Shown here: positions 3,659 through 15,977 of the stretch, piece after piece
How positions within the stretch are numbered: the first letter of the stretch is position 1
How the letters are laid out: the number at the start of each line of letters is the position of its first letter
From: Spirochaetota bacterium
GTDB taxonomy: Bacteria; Spirochaetota; UBA4802; JAFGDQ01
Length of the DNA: 64,000 nucleotides
Assembly: GCA_016932015.1 (NCBI GenBank)
Contig: JAFGDQ010000114.1
Span: forward strand, 1 to 64,000
Reading direction: 5' to 3'
The notes under the pieces: model-generated
Seen by the model: the letters and a program-made list of their open reading frames with translations, nothing else
Database searches by the model: none
What the model was told of the DNA's origin: nothing
Position numbers and translations under genes: made by a program

Positions 3659-4810
3659 TTGAATAAAAAAATCTTTAGCAATACATCAAAACTATTAACT
3701 GTAATCCTTCTCACTGCGGGTTTCCTTTTTTTTAATAGTCAAAACTCCTTTGCGGACAAAGAAAAAGATCTTATTTTAATCCTCGATACATCATTAAGCA
3801 TGGTAGGTTTTGGCGGTGATAATATTCTGCCCCAGGTCAAGAAGAGTCTGCCTGTATATATTGAACAGCTTGAAGAAGATGACAGTATCACGTTTATTAC
3901 TTTCGATACTGAAGTCAAAGTATACCCGACTGTTTATATTGATGATGAAAAAAATAAAGAGAGTTTAATCGGATATATAAAGAATATAGAAGCAACCGGC
4001 AAATGGACATATACGAAGCAAATGATTCAGGTTGCCATGAACAAAGCCCAGGAGCTTGAAGAGAAAGATGATGACCGTCAGCAGGTAATTGTTGTTATGA
4101 CCGATGCTCTTGATGATCCGCCGCCGGACAGTCGCAAAGACAGGCTCAATATAAAAGAAATAGCTGAAAATTATAAAAATAAAGACTGGTTCATATTTTT
4201 CATTAATTTCGGCCAGGCTGAAAAAAATGAAAAGCTCGCTAAAATTCAGGAAGAACTGAAAACCAGTGTTACTGAATATACAGAAGTGATCGAAGCTAAA
4301 GAGACAAAAACTGCCACAATCGAAAAGAATATAGCAAAAACAATAGAACAGGATCTTTCTACTAATATAGAAGAAATGACAACCAAAAAAATTGAAAGAG
4401 AAGGGGCATTTCCTGTCATACCGCTGCTGATGGCAATTTTAATTATTATTGCTCTTCTGCTGATACTGTATTATTTTAAAACATACACAAAAGTAAAAGT
4501 ACACGGACAGCTTGAATACTGGGATCACACGGTTCTTTCTCCATATTTCGAAAAATATAATCTCACAAGACAGGATGTAAAAGAAATATTAGTCGGGAAA
4601 AAAGGTTCATGCAATTTAACCATCCGGGAAATTGAAATTAACGACCCGTTCAGAATAACAGCAACAAGAGTCAATGGTGAAATAAAAAATACTTTACAGC
4701 CCGGAAAAGGCTATCATATTGAATACATTAACAGGGAACCCGGCGGTTATTTAAAAAACGGTGACATGTTTAAAGTCGCTAATTACACTTTTAAATATAC
4801 AAACGCCTGA
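3659..4810 (+). CDS. von Willebrand factor A-domain protein with TM segment and FHA-like C-terminus
   Basis: A 383-aa protein. The start codon is TTG at 3659, supported by an AAGGGGA ribosome site 7 nt upstream. Residues 1-32 are a signal peptide. A vWA domain follows, with the metal-ion (MIDAS) motif DTSLS at 43-47 and a later VVVMTDALDD segment. One transmembrane helix lies near 251-273. The C-terminal 100 residues include LKNGDMFKVANYTF, which resembles the end of an FHA-type beta-sandwich. The predicted topology puts the vWA domain outside the membrane and the FHA-like domain in the cytoplasm. vWA proteins bind protein ligands through a metal; the partner is unknown. Confidence 0.8.
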   Translation: MNKKIFSNTSKLLTVILLTAGFLFFNSQNSFADKEKDLILILDTSLSMVGFGGDNILPQVKKSLPVYIEQLEEDDSITFITFDTEVKVYPTVYIDDEKNKESLIGYIKNIEATGKWTYTKQMIQVAMNKAQELEEKDDDRQQVIVVMTDALDDPPPDSRKDRLNIKEIAENYKNKDWFIFFINFGQAEKNEKLAKIQEELKTSVTEYTEVIEAKETKTATIEKNIAKTIEQDLSTNIEEMTTKKIEREGAFPVIPLLMAILIIIALLLILYYFKTYTKVKVHGQLEYWDHTVLSPYFEKYNLTRQDVKEILVGKKGSCNLTIREIEINDPFRITATRVNGEIKNTLQPGKGYHIEYINREPGGYLKNGDMFKVANYTFKYTNA

Positions 4811-5213: not shown

Positions 5214-7174
5214 AAGGAGGTTTACATATGTCCGTTTTTCAATTTCCCAAAAGTCCGAATAAGGTCCATCCTGAAGTTGCAAGTGCAGTTGGTTCAAGAA
5301 ATTCAATTGTACAGGAAGGGCGTGATAAAGTAGCTGAATCAAAACTTATCTTGGATGAAACAACAGATAAGATATTAAATCATGTTCATAATAAATTACC
5401 CACAGAGGTTCTGGAAAAAATCGATGTAATGGGCGGCCTGAAAGAAAAATTATATGGATATATCAATCAGACCTACGTTAACATGTTCAATAGATACAAT
5501 GTCACAATGGAAGACGAAATAATCAAAAAAGTCCGTGACTTTGTTGACAAAGAGGAATCCAAAGGCCTTGCCAGATACACACCAAGAGAAATCACCGATA
5601 TGCTGGATAAAATAGGCGGAGCTGAAAAATTCAATACAGGTGAAATTGAGAAGTCAATAGTTAATATGTTCGGCCACCTTCAGGGACATATACAGCGGGG
5701 AATAAATGACCTTGAAAACGATACTAACTCTATTCTGCGACAAAAAACAGATGTTGGCGCTTTCGTAAGAGGCCAGAATGCATATGCAATTCTTAAATGT
5801 ATCTTTAAAGATAATGCACTAAAGCCAAAATATGTTTATGACGTTAAATTGTCAATTAACATAGGTGACAGCGAGTTGGTCAGTCCGATTAAACATTATC
5901 AGGTCACACTTGAATCAATGCTTAAAAAATCAATTCAGTCACACATACACAACCTGATTGAAAGACAGATTGAAGAGCTGAAAGAAGAGTTAGTAGACCA
6001 GGGAAAGCAGGAACTTGATGCTTCTGAAGTTATGTTTGAAAAGATTAAAAGAGTCGAAAACTTTACTGATGATAATAAAGAAGAGGAAAAATCAAAAAGA
6101 TATACAATTCTTGCTAAAAAATTCCTTGATAAAATTGAAGGTTTGAGAGCTGAAATTGATGAAGGCGAATACGATCCATTAAATATCAGGGAAAATATTA
6201 AATATGTAATTGATGAAGAAAACATCAGAGGCAGAGGTTACAACACTTGTGTAAACTCTCTTACATCAATACTTGATACAAGCAAAATGGGATATCAGGT
6301 ATGTGATAACCTGAAGAATGCAAGAATTTGCAAGATACGTGAATACGAAGAAATGGATCCTGAAGTTCTTCCTGATGAAAGATATGCTATAAGAATGGCT
6401 TATTACGATCAGGATCAGCTGAGAGAAGAAAAGAAAGAATTTGACAAACAAATGGAAGCTTTCAGCAAAGAAATTGCAAAATTATGGGATGTTATACATG
6501 CTCATTATGAATCAAAGAAAAGATTCAGATCTCTGCAGGATTTTGAAGATTTAACAAAGAGACTCATGAAAAAAGACTGGAGAGTCAGCACAAAAGAAGA
6601 GGATGATGCAAGCGGAATTCTCTGGAACGAAATCGGTGAAATGTATCCTGAAAACACATTTGTCGAAAAGAACAACAGAACATATGAATACAGAATTCTG
6701 CATCTTGTAAAAAAAATGCGTTATCTGAGAGAAATCCTTGTTAAAATGCACGGACATCAGAATCCGATTGAAAGAGTAATTCTTGATGAAAGACTTGATT
6801 TCGTTGAAAAAAGATTCCATGAATTCACATACAAAGTCAATCCGCATCATATTCATCCGGGCCTTGTCCTTGATATTGATTGTACAACTACTAAAAGAAA
6901 ACAGTACATTCTCAAAGGTATGGCAGGTGTATTAAATGAATTCCTGTTTGATATTTCCAAGGGATTTGCAGATGCTGCTTTTGCTTCATTCTCAAGAAGA
7001 AGATCAACAATAAGAGATGATATTGATCAGTCTTTCGGAGAAGAAGAAGTACAGGAAAATATTTTTGAATCAGCTTATAAAGCATCCGCTGCAGAAAATG
7101 AAGTTAAAGGAACAGTTGATCTTACACCTTCCAAAAAAGGCAGAGGTAAAACATCAGGACTTAAAGAGCTTTAG
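5214..7174 (+). CDS. cfpA: Putative cytoplasmic filament protein A
   Basis: A 648-aa protein, mostly charged and helical, with no signal peptide or membrane segment. The ATG at 5228 follows a near-ideal AAGGAGG ribosome site at 5214-5220 (included in this span), consistent with high expression. CfpA is the subunit of the cytoplasmic filament ribbons under the inner membrane of Treponema and is about 680 residues long. The size, cytoplasmic character and position two genes upstream of a PPDK homologue match the T. pallidum order TP0748-TP0746 as I remember it. I recognise it by context and general likeness, not by a diagnostic motif. It is followed by a strong terminator, so it is probably its own transcript. 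Confidence 0.65.
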
Positions 7175-7235
7175 AACAGGAGCCTTTACAGGGAGTCCTA
7201 AAAAATTGACTATTAACAGATAACAGACGATAATC

Positions 7236-7267
7236 AAAGAAGGATGCTAAATATAGCATCCTTCTTT
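7236..7267 (+). terminator. Strong intrinsic terminator after cfpA
   Basis: A perfect 14-bp stem (7236-7249 with 7254-7267) has a 4-nt AATA loop and runs into a U-rich tail. It lies 60 nt after the cfpA stop codon. Confidence 0.9.
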
Positions 7268-7286
7268 TTATTCAGTATAATAATTA

Positions 7287-7315
7287 TTGCAATTAATTTT
7301 ATTATAGGGTATACA
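7287..7315 (+). promoter_or_regulatory. Candidate promoter for the 7491-12619 gene group
   Basis: TTGCAA at 7287-7292 and TATACA at 7310-7315 are separated by 17 nt, downstream of the cfpA terminator and about 175 nt before the next start codon. It is only a moderate match to the sigma-70 consensus. The rest of 7268-7490 shows nothing else recognisable. Confidence 0.35.
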
Positions 7316-7490
7316 GGTATTATTTCATTAAAAAATTGCGATTATTATCGGAATAAATAATCTTCATAATTAAACGGGACTATCCGGAAAGAATAATATT
7401 CATTGAGTAATTATCGGTTGAATTAAACCGCCGGATTCCGCCGCTTCAGCAAAATATGCTGCTTATCATATATCCAAGGAGAAGTAATTC

Positions 7491-8411
7491 ATGGAAACAA
7501 CTTTTTATTCTCTGGCAACAAAAAGTAAATTCAACAAAGGGCTGAACCATTTTTTCGCAGTTAATGACACCGTTGAAGAAGTTCAATCCGGAAAAAACAT
7601 CGCTGACATTATTGTACGCGAACTTGACGAAGGAAATATTTCCTCAGACCAGATTCTGCCAATAGTCGGAGCTGTAATAAAAGACAAGTTTGAATATTCA
7701 TACGATTCATTTAACATTCCAAAGTCTGTAACCGATTTTAATAAGATAACTGATGAGACAACTAAGTGGACAGCAATTGATATCCTGCTGGTCTATTACA
7801 ATCCAAACGGAGATATTATTTTAATAAACCCCAAAAATCCATCTCATTGGGAAAAAGCTTCTGAATTATACAGAGATCAGCTTATGGTCATTTATTCAAA
7901 ATACATAAAAGCTGAGGATAAAGACTCAAAAATTGCCAAAGAAGCTATTAAAGCAATAGAAGAAATGATAGCAGGTAAGGACGTATTTATTAATCAGGAA
8001 TTCATTGATCAGACAGTAACACCTAAAAAAATCGTTAAGCAGGAAAAGCCTTCTTCTCCAGCCTCACCAGGCAGCGGTAAAAAAAGATTTACTCCTAAAT
8101 ACTCGGTTTTAGTTACAAATGAGCTGTTTCATAACGGTAATGTTGAAGCATGGAAAAAAATAATTGAAAGCTATACAACAACATACCCGGATCTTGAAGT
8201 AACAATCTATTACGATAATGAACTTATTAATGATATAAATTCACTTTTCAAATGGGGGAAAGTTAAAAGCCAGTCATTAATTTACTTTCAGGTAAGTGGT
8301 GAAGATATCAAAGGAGTGTCAAAATTACAAAAATATCTGTTTGAAGGAGCCAGTGTCAGATTTGAACAGTTCCTAAAATTAGGCGTTGGAAAAGTATTAA
8401 AACTATTTTAA
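7491..8411 (+). CDS. Conserved hypothetical protein between cfpA and ppdK homologue
   Basis: A 306-aa soluble protein with no signal peptide or TM segment. The ATG at 7491 follows a CCAAGGAGAAG ribosome site. I do not recognise a domain. The N-terminal 190 residues are mixed alpha/beta with acidic patches (VRELDEGNISSDQ). A Lys/Pro/Ser/Gly-rich linker (about 185-205) separates them from a compact C-terminal region of about 100 residues. Its place between the filament gene and the PPDK homologue is shared, as far as I recall, with TP0747 of T. pallidum, which suggests a lineage-specific function linked to one of them. It is 80 nt upstream of the PPDK homologue. Confidence 0.7.
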   Translation: METTFYSLATKSKFNKGLNHFFAVNDTVEEVQSGKNIADIIVRELDEGNISSDQILPIVGAVIKDKFEYSYDSFNIPKSVTDFNKITDETTKWTAIDILLVYYNPNGDIILINPKNPSHWEKASELYRDQLMVIYSKYIKAEDKDSKIAKEAIKAIEEMIAGKDVFINQEFIDQTVTPKKIVKQEKPSSPASPGSGKKRFTPKYSVLVTNELFHNGNVEAWKKIIESYTTTYPDLEVTIYYDNELINDINSLFKWGKVKSQSLIYFQVSGEDIKGVSKLQKYLFEGASVRFEQFLKLGVGKVLKLF

Positions 8412-8491
8412 ATCTTATCAAAGAACGGTACTTCTTCTAAAATATATAATTTTAATAAAAAAGCCAGGCATAACCGGAGGTTAAGAATAAT

Positions 8492-11089
8492 ATGGATAAT
8501 ATAATAAATTTTGATAAAGATCTGAAAAATGTTGATGATAAATTCTATAAAAAAGCTGGGATAAGAGGGAAAAGAGCTCTCGAACTTGCTGCAATGGGAC
8601 TTCCGATCGCACCCGGATTCATTATCGACTCGGAATTAACAAACCAGCTTCCAAGGACTAATGTAAAACAATTAATAAAAACAGCTGTTACGCAAATTGA
8701 GAAAGACATTGACAAAGAATTCGGGAATCCTAAAAAACCTTTGCTTTTAAAAGTTGTTTTAAGTTCGGACTTGAATGTTCCTTTTTTCCCGTCAATTCAC
8801 AATGTCGGATTAAACAGTAAAACAGTAGCCGGTTTCGCCAACTTTACAGGTAAGGAATTCGCATATGGTGAAGAAATTTTTCTTCTTCACAGCATGGCAA
8901 CCAAAATTTATAAATTAAAAGAGGAAGATATTAAAAAAATAGAAGCGGCCAAATCCAGACAGCAAAATCTGGAGTCAATGAGTAAAACTATTGAAAACTA
9001 TAAAAAACTTCTTGGCGATAAATATAGTGAGGATGTATATGATCAGCTCAGCCTGATCCTGAAAGGAGCTGCCGATACATATTGTGATTCCGAACTTGAT
9101 GTTGATAATTCCCTGTCAATAATGGTCCAGGCAATGGTATATGGAAACTTCGGGCAGAATTCATATTCAGGTAATTATTATACCCGGGATATTGTAACCG
9201 GTGCTCCGAAAATATCGGGCAAATATCTGCAAAATGCATTTGATATTGATAAAACCAGGCCGAAAGATATTTCAACAATTAACAAAAAATACTTTGATAA
9301 TTTTTCCGAAATAGGGAAAAAAATTGAAGATCATTACAGGGAAATTCGGGAAATCAAGTTTACAATCGAAGAAGGAAAATTCTGGATTGTTGAACAATTT
9401 GAGGTTGATGAAAAATCAACCCAGTCACACATAAAAACTCTGCTTGACCTTAACATCAGGAAGAAAATACCGGAGAAATACCTCATACAGCATATTGATC
9501 CTAATCAGCTTAATGAATTACTGCATCCGGTTATAGACCCGCGTACAATAAAAAACGTCAAAAAAATACAGGGCGGAATATCAGGGTCAACCGGTGCCGC
9601 AATCGGACGTGTTTATTTTTCAACTCCAAAATTACTGGAAGAGCACAAACGCGCTATAATGAGGGGTGATGACACTAATATGATCCTTGTTATGCCTGCA
9701 ACATATGCCGAAGACGTTAAAGCTATTGAGCTGTCAAAGGGTGTAATATCAACAGAAGGCGGATTCTCTTCACACGCACCTGTTGTAGCAAGAAGCCTTG
9801 GAAAGGTTGCAATGGTTCAGCCGGACATGAAAATTCGCGGCAATTCATTCACATTGAGCGGAAAGACAATAAAAGAAGGCGATTATATTTCAATCAACGT
9901 GCCGTATTACGAAGCTCCTACAATTTATCTTGGACAGGTAGGATTGATTGAGCCGAATTTCAAAGAGAACGGGCTTCTCGATTTCATTGATATAGTTCAT
10001 AAATTTATCGGTGATTTTGATGTCCGGGCAAATGCTGACCAGCCTAGAGACGCCACTGTTGCAAAACAGTTTCATGCCAGAGGTATCGGATTGTGCAGAA
10101 CCGAACATATGTTCTTTAACGAAAAACGAATTATGACTTTCAGACAGATGATACTTGCTGAAGATGAAACGGAAAGGAATAAAGCCCTCAGCGCATTAAA
10201 GCCTATGCAGAGGTCGGACTTTTACGAATTATTTAAAATAATGCAGGGACTTCCTGTTACTATAAGACTGCTCGATGCGCCATTGCATGAATTTCTTCCA
10301 AGAACTCAGCAAAGCATGGACGAACTGATAAAATTCCTGAGAACAAAGAAAAAAAATGTTTCAGCACAGGAAATTAAATCAAGATGTGATGAACTTTCCG
10401 AAATGAACCCGATGCTCGGTCACAGAGGCTGCAGAGTCGCGATTACCCACCCTGAGATTTATGAAATGCAGTGCAGGGCTATCTTTGAAGCTGCCTGTAT
10501 GTTAAAGAAAGAAGGCATTAAAGTGCATCCTGAGATAATGATTCCTATTGTAATGAGCGAGCAGGAACTTAAATTCATTAAAAACGGTAAAAAAATCGAA
10601 GGTAAAACAGTAAAAGGTATTCGGGATATAAAGGATGAAGTAATCAAGGAATACGGGATCAAAGAAATTGACTACAGGATAGGAACAATGATAGAACTGC
10701 CTGCAGCAGCCTTAAGAGCAGGGTCAATCGCACAGTACGCCGAATTTTTCAGCTTTGGTACAAACGACCTGACACAAACATCATACGGGCTTTCACGAGA
10801 TGACAGTAACTCATTTTTCCCGAGCTATTCTCTTTATGACCTGGTAAAAGATAATCCTTTTAAAGTTCTCGGAGATGAAGTTAAAGAACTAATCGAAACC
10901 GCACAGCTGAGAGGGAAACTAACAAGGCCGAACATTAAGACAGGCCTGTGCGGAGAACACGGAGCGGATCCGGAAAATATCGGTTTCTGCATAAATGCAG
11001 GTTTAAATTATGTTTCATGTTCAGCTTATTCAATTCCGCTTGCAAAACTCGCTATTGCCAAACACAATGTAGCTGAAGAAGAGGAATAA
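8492..11089 (+). CDS. ppdK: Pyruvate,phosphate dikinase homologue with degenerate ATP-grasp domain
   Basis: An 865-aa protein, the normal PPDK length, colinear over its whole length with classical PPDK. The central phosphohistidine domain is intact (GGFSSHAPVVAR, catalytic His 428). So is the C-terminal PEP/pyruvate barrel: RLLDAPLHEF, MLGHRGCR, GTMIELP, SFGTNDLTQ and the active-site Cys in GLCGEHGADP. The N-terminal nucleotide domain is colinear but altered. Lys27 is kept, but the SVRSGAR loop is KVVLSS (87-92), the Asp/Glu pair becomes Glu287/Lys289, and the LQTR motif reads VEQF (300-303). Conversion of ATP, Pi and pyruvate to PEP is therefore doubtful. GGAGG lies 11 nt before the ATG. A PAP-like PEP-binding or regulatory role is possible. 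Confidence 0.85.
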   Translation: MDNIINFDKDLKNVDDKFYKKAGIRGKRALELAAMGLPIAPGFIIDSELTNQLPRTNVKQLIKTAVTQIEKDIDKEFGNPKKPLLLKVVLSSDLNVPFFPSIHNVGLNSKTVAGFANFTGKEFAYGEEIFLLHSMATKIYKLKEEDIKKIEAAKSRQQNLESMSKTIENYKKLLGDKYSEDVYDQLSLILKGAADTYCDSELDVDNSLSIMVQAMVYGNFGQNSYSGNYYTRDIVTGAPKISGKYLQNAFDIDKTRPKDISTINKKYFDNFSEIGKKIEDHYREIREIKFTIEEGKFWIVEQFEVDEKSTQSHIKTLLDLNIRKKIPEKYLIQHIDPNQLNELLHPVIDPRTIKNVKKIQGGISGSTGAAIGRVYFSTPKLLEEHKRAIMRGDDTNMILVMPATYAEDVKAIELSKGVISTEGGFSSHAPVVARSLGKVAMVQPDMKIRGNSFTLSGKTIKEGDYISINVPYYEAPTIYLGQVGLIEPNFKENGLLDFIDIVHKFIGDFDVRANADQPRDATVAKQFHARGIGLCRTEHMFFNEKRIMTFRQMILAEDETERNKALSALKPMQRSDFYELFKIMQGLPVTIRLLDAPLHEFLPRTQQSMDELIKFLRTKKKNVSAQEIKSRCDELSEMNPMLGHRGCRVAITHPEIYEMQCRAIFEAACMLKKEGIKVHPEIMIPIVMSEQELKFIKNGKKIEGKTVKGIRDIKDEVIKEYGIKEIDYRIGTMIELPAAALRAGSIAQYAEFFSFGTNDLTQTSYGLSRDDSNSFFPSYSLYDLVKDNPFKVLGDEVKELIETAQLRGKLTRPNIKTGLCGEHGADPENIGFCINAGLNYVSCSAYSIPLAKLAIAKHNVAEEEE

Positions 11090-11103
11090 AACCTGATAAT
11101 AAC

Positions 11104-12390
11104 ATGAATCAATCAACAGAATCTCATACCGGCAGCATTCAGGATAAAAAATCCGGAGACCTGAAAAAACTTCTGGATATCAATAATATCATAATCTCCA
11201 TTCTGGATATAGGTAAACTTCTGAACATTATAATGGAAACCATCAAGGATATTATGAATGCCGAGGCTAGTACACTTTTTCTTTATGAGGAAAAAACCAA
11301 AGACCTTGTATTTAAAGTGGCGCTGGGAGAAGCCGGTAAGGAGCTGACTGAGAAATACAGGGTAAAAGTTGGACAGGGGGTTGCCGGCTGGGTCGCTGAA
11401 AAGAAACAGCCTGTTTATATTAATAACGTCTACAATGATGAAAGATTTGATCCTAATTATGATAAGAAAACCGGTTTTAACTCCAGGGCAATACTTTGTG
11501 TGCCATTACTCTTTAAAGGAAAATTACTCGGAGTAATACAGGCAATAAATCCGATTGGCAGGCCCGGGTTTACTGACGATGATCTTGACCTGTTCTGCTT
11601 ATTTGCCAATCAGGCGGTATTGGCGGTTCAAAATGCCATTTTCTTTCAAAACGCTCTGGAAGAGCAAAGACTGAAAAATGAGATATCTTCGGCAAAAGCT
11701 TTTCAGAAATCTCTGCTTCCTGCAATAAATAATAAAAATGACGGAATTCATATAGCAGCAAGATCATTTTCCGCCAGAGAAGTTGGAGGTGAATTTTACG
11801 ATATTTTTAATTTTCAGGACAATTCAATCGGCATTGTAATCGGCGGAATACATATGAAGGGTATTCCGGGAGCTTTAAATGCCTCAATAGTATCAGGGGC
11901 AATAAAGGGATTAAGCCTTAAACTAAATGGCCATCCTTCCGGAATAATTACAGCTCTTAATAATACCATAACAAAAAGTATTACTACAATTGACAATCTT
12001 TCTCTTTTTTACGGGCTTATTTCTACGGACAAAAAAATACTGCATTTTGTAAACGCCGGTTTTGCCTACCCTATTATAATCAGAAAAAATGTTGCCAGGT
12101 ATTTAAAATTTAAAAGCAATTCACTAGGCAAATTGCAGAATCTCCCGAAAAGAATAAGTGTTAAGTTAGAACCCGAAGACTTTTTTGTAATAATAACAGA
12201 CGGCATTGTCAATATTAAAAACCGCGGTGCACAGAATATGGGATTAAAAAGAATAATGGACCATTTAAGCAACAATTTTGAATCCCCGCAGGATATTGTC
12301 GATTCACTAATTAAACTTACGGATGATTTTCTTGACGGGCTTGAAAAGATGGAAGACATATCCATCCTGGCCCTAAAAATAGAGGATTAA
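11104..12390 (+). CDS. GAF domain-PP2C (SpoIIE/RsbU-like) protein, probably degenerate
   Basis: A 428-aa cytoplasmic protein. A GAF sensor domain covers about residues 25-185 (EASTLFLYEE, GQGVAGWVAEK, LLGVIQAINP). It is followed by a short helical linker and a SpoIIE/RsbU-type phosphatase domain (about 195-425). Such enzymes dephosphorylate STAS anti-anti-sigma proteins, and several STAS genes occur in this window. The first metal motif GGDFYD reads GGEFYD (228-233). The GDVSGKG motif is GGIHMKG (247-253), losing its aspartate; the later ITDG and EDISIL motifs remain. It may be a pseudophosphatase that signals by binding. It starts 14 nt after the ppdK homologue and is probably co-transcribed. 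Confidence 0.8.
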   Translation: MNQSTESHTGSIQDKKSGDLKKLLDINNIIISILDIGKLLNIIMETIKDIMNAEASTLFLYEEKTKDLVFKVALGEAGKELTEKYRVKVGQGVAGWVAEKKQPVYINNVYNDERFDPNYDKKTGFNSRAILCVPLLFKGKLLGVIQAINPIGRPGFTDDDLDLFCLFANQAVLAVQNAIFFQNALEEQRLKNEISSAKAFQKSLLPAINNKNDGIHIAARSFSAREVGGEFYDIFNFQDNSIGIVIGGIHMKGIPGALNASIVSGAIKGLSLKLNGHPSGIITALNNTITKSITTIDNLSLFYGLISTDKKILHFVNAGFAYPIIIRKNVARYLKFKSNSLGKLQNLPKRISVKLEPEDFFVIITDGIVNIKNRGAQNMGLKRIMDHLSNNFESPQDIVDSLIKLTDDFLDGLEKMEDISILALKIED

Positions 12391-12397
12391 TAATACT

Positions 12398-12619
12398 ATG
12401 AGCAATTATGTATCAATAATATTCTGCAAAAACTGTAATTCCAGGTATGTAGAGATTGAGGAATGGGCTGAACCGGAAAAAAAAGTAATAATCCGCTGCC
12501 GAACCTGCGGAGTCAGTGAAATTGTTACAAATTTTACTCTCGGAAGGTGCAAGATTTCCGACAAAGACCTGCAAACCGCAAGAGATACCCGGGCGATTCC
12601 TTTTAAATTTGAAAGATAA
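12398..12619 (+). CDS. Small zinc-ribbon protein
   Basis: A 73-aa protein with two Cys-x2-Cys knuckles (Cys10/13 and Cys34/37), the geometry of a zinc ribbon, and a basic C-terminal tail. It starts 7 nt after the GAF-PP2C stop, so it is very likely co-translated as the last gene of the group. Zinc ribbons of this size bind nucleic acid or a protein partner; nothing further can be assigned. Its 3' end faces the convergent glycosyltransferase gene with a 12-nt gap. Confidence 0.65.
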   Translation: MSNYVSIIFCKNCNSRYVEIEEWAEPEKKVIIRCRTCGVSEIVTNFTLGRCKISDKDLQTARDTRAIPFKFER

Positions 12620-14684: not shown

Positions 14685-15203
14685 CTAATTACAGTCAGCT
14701 TTTTTATCCATGTAATCCTGAAATGAAACCTGCTTTTTATAACATTCTTCATTTACATATCTTAATATAGCTGTAAACATTTCAGGCTTAATAAAACCAG
14801 GTACCAAATCTATCGGTTTACCGTCTTTATCCATAAATAAAACAGTTGGCAAACCTTTAACTCCAACAGCAGAAGCCAATCCGTTTGGAGTTGTTTCCAT
14901 TCCCATGTAATTAATTTTATCGTTTTTCTCGGTATTGAGCCTGATCGCGATGAAATTCTCCGAAAGTATTTTAATAACTTCTTTATTGGAAAATGTTTCT
15001 TTATCCATAACCTTGCACCAGTGGCACCAGTCAGCATAGAAATCAATTACAATTGATTTTTTCTGCTCTTTTGCCTTTATAAGACCTGTATCAAAGGATT
15101 CCCACTTTACACTTTCTACCGAACTTTCTTTAGGTTTGGAGTTTCCGGGGCATGAAACCTGAATAACTGCAATCAATATGATTAATATAATTTTAAACTT
15201 CAT
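14685..15203 (-). CDS. Thioredoxin-fold lipoprotein
   Basis: A 172-aa protein with a lipobox ending at Cys18 (VSC) and a thioredoxin-like domain. The redox motif is CHWC at residues 60-63 (YADWCHWCKVMD), followed by the usual cis-proline strand GLPTVLFMDKDG. This matches the DsbD C-terminal/thioredoxin_7 group, which reduces disulfides of envelope proteins or maintains apocytochromes. Membrane attachment through the N-terminal cysteine places it on the periplasmic face. A GAAGAGGAA ribosome site precedes the ATG. No partner such as DsbD or a cytochrome maturation gene lies nearby. Confidence 0.85.
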   Translation of the reverse strand: MKFKIILIILIAVIQVSCPGNSKPKESSVESVKWESFDTGLIKAKEQKKSIVIDFYADWCHWCKVMDKETFSNKEVIKILSENFIAIRLNTEKNDKINYMGMETTPNGLASAVGVKGLPTVLFMDKDGKPIDLVPGFIKPEMFTAILRYVNEECYKKQVSFQDYMDKKADCN

Positions 15204-15356
15204 TTTTTCCTCTTCAATGTTTAATTCAATATTTAGATTCCCTGATATTTATCTAAATATAACTAATATAACTACTTACAGACAGGCTGTATATTAATTA
15301 TATTAATGTATACATATTTTAACAGGAGAATATAAATATTGTAAGTGCAGGATTCA

Positions 15357-15977
15357 TTAAAATGTTACAGTCTGATCAGGGTCAACAAAAAATTCTGTTT
15401 TACAGTCAGGGCATATATAATTACCGCTTTTTTTAACTCTGATCATGCTTTTGCAGTTGCTGCATTCGAGAATAATCGGATTTTCAAATACTTTTTCAGT
15501 ATTGTCTTTATAAAAATTCATTACTAATGAATTATCTGAATCTGTTTTTATCTCTCCCGAATCAATATTCATTTGACTCTGATTCATGATATCTATCTGT
15601 TCTTTTCTGATTTCTTCCTCAAGTTTAAAATGTTTATCCATAATCTGTATTGCTTCAGCTTTGTCTGCTGCTGTCCGGATAACCTTGTCAAATCCGAGCA
15701 ATTTAAAAAGCGCCTGTATTTCATCAGTAACACTGCAGATAATAAACATTCCTTTCTGTGCGAGTACTTTTTTCTGAATGTATAGAATAACTCCAATACC
15801 TGCAGAACTTATGTATTCAATATTTTCAGCATTTATAACAATATTTGATTTCTTTCTGGATAGCAATTGATTTATGTAATCTTCAAAATCGGCGCTGTTT
15901 TCAGAATTGAGAGCGCCCTTCACATCAACAATTATTGCTTTATCATCAATTACTGCTGAATGACTGATAAAGATCAT
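15357..15977 (-). CDS. STAS domain protein with C-terminal zinc ribbon
   Basis: A 206-aa protein. Residues 1-110 form a STAS (anti-sigma factor antagonist) domain with the switch-serine region YISSAGIGVILYI, in which a serine is the usual phosphorylation site. A linker leads to a C-terminal zinc ribbon with CSNC and CPDC knuckles (about 170-195). STAS proteins act in partner switching with an anti-sigma kinase and a PP2C phosphatase. The ribbon is an unusual addition. The start overlaps the stop of the upstream membrane sensor by 4 nt (ATGA), indicating translational coupling, so it is probably the sensor's output partner. Confidence 0.85.
   Translation of the reverse strand: MIFISHSAVIDDKAIIVDVKGALNSENSADFEDYINQLLSRKKSNIVINAENIEYISSAGIGVILYIQKKVLAQKGMFIICSVTDEIQALFKLLGFDKVIRTAADKAEAIQIMDKHFKLEEEIRKEQIDIMNQSQMNIDSGEIKTDSDNSLVMNFYKDNTEKVFENPIILECSNCKSMIRVKKSGNYICPDCKTEFFVDPDQTVTF

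What the first reader, a model, noticed from the sequence alone, without database searches (positions are those of the whole stretch)
5214..12619. Filament-pseudoenzyme locus: cfpA, unknown, PPDK homologue, GAF-PP2C homologue, zinc ribbon
Five same-strand genes follow one another. The two recognisable enzymes have each lost catalytic residues while keeping the fold. The order cfpA-unknown-ppdK recalls Treponema TP0748-TP0746, so the linkage may be ancient. Inference: the set may be a regulatory or structural system tied to the cytoplasmic filament, using a PEP/His-phosphotransfer module and a GAF sensor. This is the best candidate here for an undescribed system.
Basis: partly seen in the sequence, partly recalled or inferred. 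Interest (0 to 1): 0.62.

Follow-up and report, generated by a model that had tools for sequence, protein, structure and literature searches.

The report
PEP-driven relay beside spirochaete cytoplasmic filament
Next to the gene for the spirochaetes' internal cytoplasmic filament sits an ancient, conserved gene pair that looks like a PEP-powered phosphate relay (a PPDK-like protein that has lost its ATP site plus an HPr-fold protein), and the protein now called the glycolytic enzyme PPDK in the syphilis bacterium appears to belong to this pair.

Summary
The five genes are real, and the core order cfpA-unknown-PPDK-like is ancient: 46 of 60 cfpA loci fetched across Spirochaetota have the strict triplet, and the exceptions mostly keep the pair together. 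CfpA is confirmed. The PPDK-like protein is not simply a pseudoenzyme. It is one clade (SH-aLRT 100), separate from the true PPDK that this genome also has. In 53 of 53 cfpA-linked copies Lys22, Arg92 and Glu323 of the ATP-grasp site are replaced, while His455, Arg561, Arg617, Glu745, Asn768, Asp769 and Cys831 are invariant: the ATP half-reaction looks lost, the PEP half kept. The 306-aa unknown ends in a domain predicted with high confidence to have the HPr fold (first 33 PDB structure hits all HPr, NPr or Crh). Its histidine, at the HPr His15 position, is invariant in all aligned copies. Best reading: an EI/HPr-like PEP phosphorelay tied to the filament; phosphotransfer and target are inferred, not shown. 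Published T. denticola data show co-expression of the three genes and co-fractionation of the PPDK-like protein with CfpA. TP0746, T. pallidum's only annotated PPDK, is of this type, and T. pallidum has no pyruvate kinase. The GAF-PP2C and zinc-ribbon genes are lineage-specific accessories.

The parts
3659..4810 (+). VWA-domain protein upstream of cfpA (PF00092); recurrent neighbour across the order and, rearranged, in a distant family and Treponema
5228..7174 (+). cfpA, cytoplasmic filament protein A
   Evidence: NF040882 884 bits, E 5e-266
7236..7267 (+). Terminator-like hairpin followed by T-run between cfpA and the 306-aa gene
   Evidence: 51-nt fold -20.6 kcal/mol, z -6.8; position
7491..8411 (+). 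306-aa protein of a conserved, previously unassigned family; N-terminal alpha/beta domain, linker, C-terminal HPr-fold domain
   Evidence: alignments A1, A2; AlphaFold2 pLDDT 86.8
8085..8408 (+). HPr-fold domain, residues 199-306 of the 306-aa protein
   Evidence: AlphaFold2 pLDDT 91.4, pTM 0.86; first 33 Foldseek PDB hits HPr/NPr/Crh
8130..8132 (+). Codon of His214, at the HPr His15 position; invariant
   Evidence: 54/54 and 66/66 rows, plus four dispersed copies
8492..11089 (+). PPDK-like protein: degenerate ATP-grasp domain, intact phosphohistidine swivel domain, intact PEP-binding domain
9773..9775 (+). Codon of His428, equivalent to PPDK His455 (phosphohistidine)
   Evidence: alignment; invariant
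11104..12390 (+). GAF-SpoIIE/PP2C-like protein, metal-site residues changed; accessory, shared with one sister genus
12398..12619 (+). 73-aa zinc-ribbon protein; accessory, shared with one sister genus

Best explanation
The core is a two-protein PEP phosphorelay dedicated to the CfpA cytoplasmic filament. The PPDK-like protein binds PEP and phosphorylates its own swivel-domain histidine (His428), releasing pyruvate, as PPDK and PTS Enzyme I do. Its ATP-grasp domain can no longer handle ATP/Pi and probably serves as a docking or scaffold domain. The phosphoryl group is then passed to the invariant His214 of the HPr-fold domain of the 306-aa partner, whose N-terminal domain would connect the relay to CfpA filaments or regulate their assembly or anchoring according to PEP/pyruvate status. 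Shown by computation: gene linkage, co-occurrence, residue loss and retention, predicted HPr fold and His placement. Inferred: PEP autophosphorylation, the transfer step, physical binding to CfpA, and the output.
For: Linkage: strict cfpA-306aa-PPDKL triplet in 46 of 60 fetched cfpA loci, 7 more with PPDKL a few genes on; in three genomes where cfpA has moved, the 306-aa/PPDKL pair stays adjacent. Co-occurrence: CfpA in 109/296 and the 306-aa protein in 106/296 phylum genomes, 104 shared. Residues: 53/53 linked copies have Lys22->Arg, Arg92->Val/Ile and Glu323 replaced, and 53/53 keep His455, Arg561, Arg617, Glu745, Asn768, Asp769, Cys831; true spirochaete PPDKs keep all. Constraint: ATP-grasp domain mean identity 0.42 in the linked clade against 0.63 in true PPDK, while His (0.59/0.57) and PEP (0.65/0.61) domains are equally constrained. 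One genome has lost the whole ATP-grasp domain but keeps the His and PEP residues, right after its 306-aa gene. Single clade, SH-aLRT 100. HPr fold; His invariant. Published: TDE0842-44 co-repressed (PMC3914990); TDE0844 and CfpA both major bands of the T. denticola envelope fraction (PMC3931704).
Against: No sequence-profile method sees HPr in the 306-aa protein: hhalign probability 0.2%, no PF00381 among the Pfam hits listed, no PDB profile hit; Foldseek E-values are 0.004 at best. HPr Arg17 and Pro18 are not kept (FHNGN against LHTRP; sequence). No HPr-binding domain of Enzyme I was matched in the PPDK-like protein. cfpA and the pair are separated by a terminator-like hairpin here. One reduced family (f32) has all three genes dispersed, one 93%-complete genome (G117) has CfpA with neither partner detected, and no interaction with CfpA has been measured.
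Confidence: 0.58

Rival explanations
1. The PPDK-like protein is still a working PPDK with a rewired nucleotide site, serving glycolysis near the filament; the 306-aa protein is an unrelated chaperone or anchor.
For: Literature treats TP0746 as glycolytic PPDK (PMC10013896); T. pallidum has no pyruvate kinase and no other PPDK, so it seems to need one.
Against: Lys22, Arg92 and Glu323 are all replaced in every linked copy, Glu323 mostly by Lys/Arg; most genomes also carry a true PPDK; one copy lacks the whole ATP domain.
Confidence: 0.15
2. Purely structural: PPDK-like and 306-aa proteins are filament-associated scaffolds, the PEP site being a ligand sensor without phosphotransfer.
For: Major-band abundance of TDE0844 in the envelope fraction along with CfpA; HPr Arg17 missing from the partner.
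Against: Full retention of the phosphohistidine, of Cys831 and of the PEP residues in the linked copies, and invariance of His214, argue for chemistry rather than binding alone.
Confidence: 0.17
3. The relay is real but its target is not the filament (for example it controls a metabolic enzyme or the VWA/DUF6602 neighbours); the cfpA linkage reflects a shared regulon.
For: The 306-aa/PPDKL pair can leave cfpA (L231-L234); VWA and DUF6602 genes are also frequent neighbours.
Against: Near-perfect co-occurrence with CfpA and co-fractionation with CfpA.
Confidence: 0.1

Closest known systems
Pyruvate, phosphate dikinase (TIGR01828; PDB 1DIK, 1KBL)
   Same: Domain order ATP-grasp / His swivel / PEP domain; all PEP and phosphohistidine residues checked
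   Different: ATP-grasp residues Lys22, Arg92, Glu323 replaced; below family cut-off; separate clade; genes linked to cfpA
PTS Enzyme I and HPr (TIGR01417, PF00381), including nitrogen-PTS EINtr/NPr
   Same: PEP-to-His swivel domain plus an HPr-fold partner with a histidine at the N-cap of helix 1
   Different: Kinase derives from PPDK, not EI; EI HPr-binding domain not matched; HPr-like domain lacks Arg17-Pro18, is fused to another domain and is not found by HPr profiles; no EII components at the locus
CfpA cytoplasmic filament of Treponema (NF040882)
   Same: CfpA itself; same order TP0748-0747-0746 and TDE0842-0843-0844
   Different: The flanking pair has been annotated as hypothetical protein plus PPDK, not as a filament-linked relay
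Rifampin phosphotransferase (PMC4844700)
   Same: A related three-domain architecture with a His swivel domain and one substrate half changed (abstract)
   Different: There the ATP-grasp side is kept and the other substrate domain binds rifampin; here the ATP side is lost and the PEP side kept

Membership tests
CfpA (NF040882) | Score above curated cut-off (500 bits) | tested here: met
   884 bits
CfpA (NF040882) | Forms cytoplasmic filaments | not testable with these tools
   needs microscopy
Pyruvate, phosphate dikinase | TIGR01828 score above cut-off (843 bits) | tested here: not met
   696 bits; true PPDK of the same genome 1409
Pyruvate, phosphate dikinase | ATP-grasp residues Lys22, Arg92, Asp321, Glu323 | tested here: not met
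   R, V, E, K in the window; Lys22, Arg92 and Glu323 replaced in 53/53 linked copies, Asp321 in 52/53; Gln335 alignment-dependent and not claimed
Pyruvate, phosphate dikinase | His455 and PEP-site residues | tested here: met
   53/53
PTS Enzyme I | TIGR01417 score above cut-off; EI HPr-binding domain | tested here: not met
   116 bits against 342; no EI N-terminal domain matched in Pfam
HPr (PF00381) | Profile match | tested here: not met
HPr (PF00381) | Fold beta-alpha-beta-beta-alpha-beta-alpha | tested here: met
   predicted structure
HPr (PF00381) | Phosphorylatable His at N-cap of helix 1 | tested here: met
   His214 directly before helix 1, invariant; phosphorylation itself not tested
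HPr (PF00381) | Arg17-Pro18 after His15 | tested here: not met
   Gly216-Asn217 at these places (sequence)
SpoIIE/PP2C phosphatase | Metal-binding aspartates | tested here: not met
   VGGE and GIHMKG in the window; sister genus keeps Asp in LGDCHIKG

The most novel reading that the evidence does not exclude
A dedicated PEP-to-histidine phosphorelay, made from a PPDK paralogue that lost its ATP half and an HPr-fold protein, reports energy state to (or drives remodelling of) a bacterial cytoskeletal filament; it is as old as the CfpA filament in Spirochaetota, and T. pallidum's 'PPDK' is this relay kinase, leaving its PEP-to-pyruvate step unassigned.
Probability: 0.4. Interest if true: 0.88.

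Novelty: new variant of a known kind. Interest (0 to 1): 0.73.

Why it matters
It would give the spirochaete cytoplasmic filament, whose regulation is unknown as far as I could find, two named partners and a testable chemistry. It would also be the first case I know of in which a PEP phosphorelay is tied to a cytoskeletal element. It bears on syphilis metabolism: TP0746 is described as the glycolytic PPDK in the literature (PMC10013896), yet it lacks the ATP-site residues, and no pyruvate kinase or other PPDK was found in that genome.

Tried and rejected
HPr homology by sequence: hhalign of the C-terminal domain against 29 HPr proteins of relatives, Pfam at E up to 10 and a PDB profile search were all negative; only structure prediction showed it. 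'Plain pseudoenzyme': rejected, because the PEP/His half is as conserved as in true PPDK. 'Gln335 lost': dropped, because it depends on a one-residue gap. 'PPDK-like proteins in CfpA-less genomes': ten genomes with two PPDK matches were checked; seven have one true PPDK reported in two pieces, two have two true PPDKs, and one has a true PPDK plus an unrelated 793-aa protein. GAF-PP2C and zinc ribbon as core: rejected. One apparent true-PPDK outlier (L103) was a wrong-strand ORF and was left out. Fold of the 306-aa protein's N-terminal domain: no credible PDB match. A structure of CfpA was not run; the second job went to the HPr-like domain.

Full report
Observation. The five ORFs lie where stated, all on +. 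The window is contig C32 of a 4.42-Mb draft genome of Spirochaetota. The first protein is CfpA (NF040882, 884 bits, cut-off 500). The second has no Pfam or NCBIfam match. The third matches PPDK over its whole length but scores below the family cut-off (696 against 843 bits), and the same genome carries a separate, full-scoring PPDK (1409 bits). The fourth is GAF plus SpoIIE/PP2C. The fifth is a 73-aa zinc ribbon.

Conservation of the locus. I fetched 60 cfpA loci from across the phylum. The strict order cfpA - 306-aa - PPDK-like occurs in 46; in 7 loci of one family VWA, DUF6602 and other genes lie between the 306-aa gene and the PPDK-like gene; one locus ends without a detected PPDK-like gene; 6 have cfpA alone (gene clusters). 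In three of those six genomes (G007, G087, G212) the 306-aa/PPDK-like pair is adjacent elsewhere; only the small-genome family f32 has all parts dispersed. A scan of 84,980 species genomes for the 306-aa protein found 344 relatives; the 80 best are all in the same setting wherever the contig allows, apart from a few with the pair but no cfpA. Nearly all are labelled spirochaetes; two MAGs are labelled Deltaproteobacteria and SAR324. CfpA occurs in 109 and the 306-aa protein in 106 of 296 phylum genomes, 104 shared; most mismatches are incomplete genomes or contig ends. A VWA gene is the next most regular neighbour. The GAF-PP2C and zinc-ribbon genes recur downstream only in one sister genus; a distant family has a GAF-GGDEF gene just before its PPDK-like gene.

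The PPDK-like protein. Against C. symbiosum PPDK numbering, 53 of 53 linked copies have Arg for Lys22, Val or Ile for Arg92, and a replaced Glu323 (Lys or Arg in 52), while 53 of 53 keep His455, Arg561, Arg617, Glu745, Asn768, Asp769 and Cys831. A second set of about 79 sequences, mostly from named loci, gives nearly the same picture, with a few single exceptions in truncated or split copies. True spirochaete PPDKs keep every residue. That these ATP-grasp residues matter for the ATP/Pi half-reaction rests on published C. symbiosum mutagenesis as I recall it. Mean pairwise identity shows relaxation of the ATP-grasp domain only: 0.42 against 0.63 in true PPDK, with the His and PEP domains equal. 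One closed genome lost the whole ATP-grasp domain and keeps a 587-residue frame (His and PEP domains) right after the 306-aa gene; that lineage evolves fast, so the case is supportive rather than decisive. The linked proteins form one clade (58 rows, SH-aLRT 100). Ten CfpA-less genomes with two PPDK matches contain no such protein.

The 306-aa protein. AlphaFold2 (66 natural rows) gives pLDDT 86.8. The C-terminal ~100 residues show strand-helix-strand-strand-helix-strand-helix, the HPr order, with invariant His214 just before helix 1, where HPr has His15. Modelled alone (pLDDT 91.4, pTM 0.86), its first 33 Foldseek matches among 350,542 PDB chains are all HPr, NPr or Crh (probability up to 1.00, best E 0.004, target TM up to 0.68). 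Sequence methods do not see this, and Arg17-Pro18 of HPr are absent, so I do not file it under PF00381; it has an HPr fold and a histidine in the right place. His214 is invariant in 54/54 and 66/66 rows and in the dispersed f32 copies. The Ser46 equivalent is Ser, Thr or Ala, so HprK control is unlikely.

Mechanism. Kept PEP/His chemistry next to an HPr-fold partner is the arrangement of Enzyme I and HPr, so I infer PEP -> PPDKL-His428~P -> His214~P on the 306-aa protein -> a filament-related target. Steps shown by computation: predicted fold, residues, linkage. Not shown: any phosphorylation, any binding to CfpA, the final output.

Published support found. In T. denticola TDE0842-44 (cfpA, hypothetical, 'pyruvate phosphate dikinase') are repressed together in co-culture (PMC3914990), and TDE0844 and CfpA are both among the 16 major bands of the envelope fraction (PMC3931704), although both are expected in the cytoplasm. 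In the passages I read the papers draw no link between the two.

T. pallidum. Papers call TP0746 the glycolytic PPDK (PMC10013896). If it has no ATP half-reaction, the PEP-to-pyruvate step of T. pallidum is unassigned, unless TP0746 works in an unexpected way; this is the strongest argument for the rival reading.

Verdict. It is a new variant of a known kind (a PTS-like phosphorelay built from a PPDK paralogue), conserved with the filament across Spirochaetota.

Noticed in passing
L061 (T. pallidum-size genome G056), 15181-15849: The small VWA-domain protein divergent from cfpA in treponemes (223 aa here, next to a 237-aa gene) clusters with the VWA gene upstream of cfpA in the window's order, so the VWA protein may be another old filament-locus member.
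   Followed up: partly
L073 (G203), 6983-7908: 306-aa family gene split into two frames in a closed genome while the neighbours are intact: frameshift or sequencing error.
   Followed up: no
L237 (G287), 9394-12077: PPDK-like gene split into two overlapping frames in a closed treponeme genome.
   Followed up: no
L267 (G224): 793-aa protein with PPDK His and PEP domains but no ATP-grasp domain and an unknown C-terminal extension, in a genome without CfpA; it falls outside the linked clade.
   Followed up: partly
L202: MAG labelled SAR324 with two cfpA copies flanking the 306-aa/PPDK-like pair.
   Followed up: no
window 15357-15977: STAS-domain protein with a C-terminal zinc-ribbon-like tail (CSNCK...CPDCK).
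   Followed up: no
L085-L092, cluster 7 (650-900 aa): Large protein without Pfam match, between VWA and GAF-GGDEF genes in one family and directly upstream of cfpA in others; a possible further filament-locus component.
   Followed up: partly
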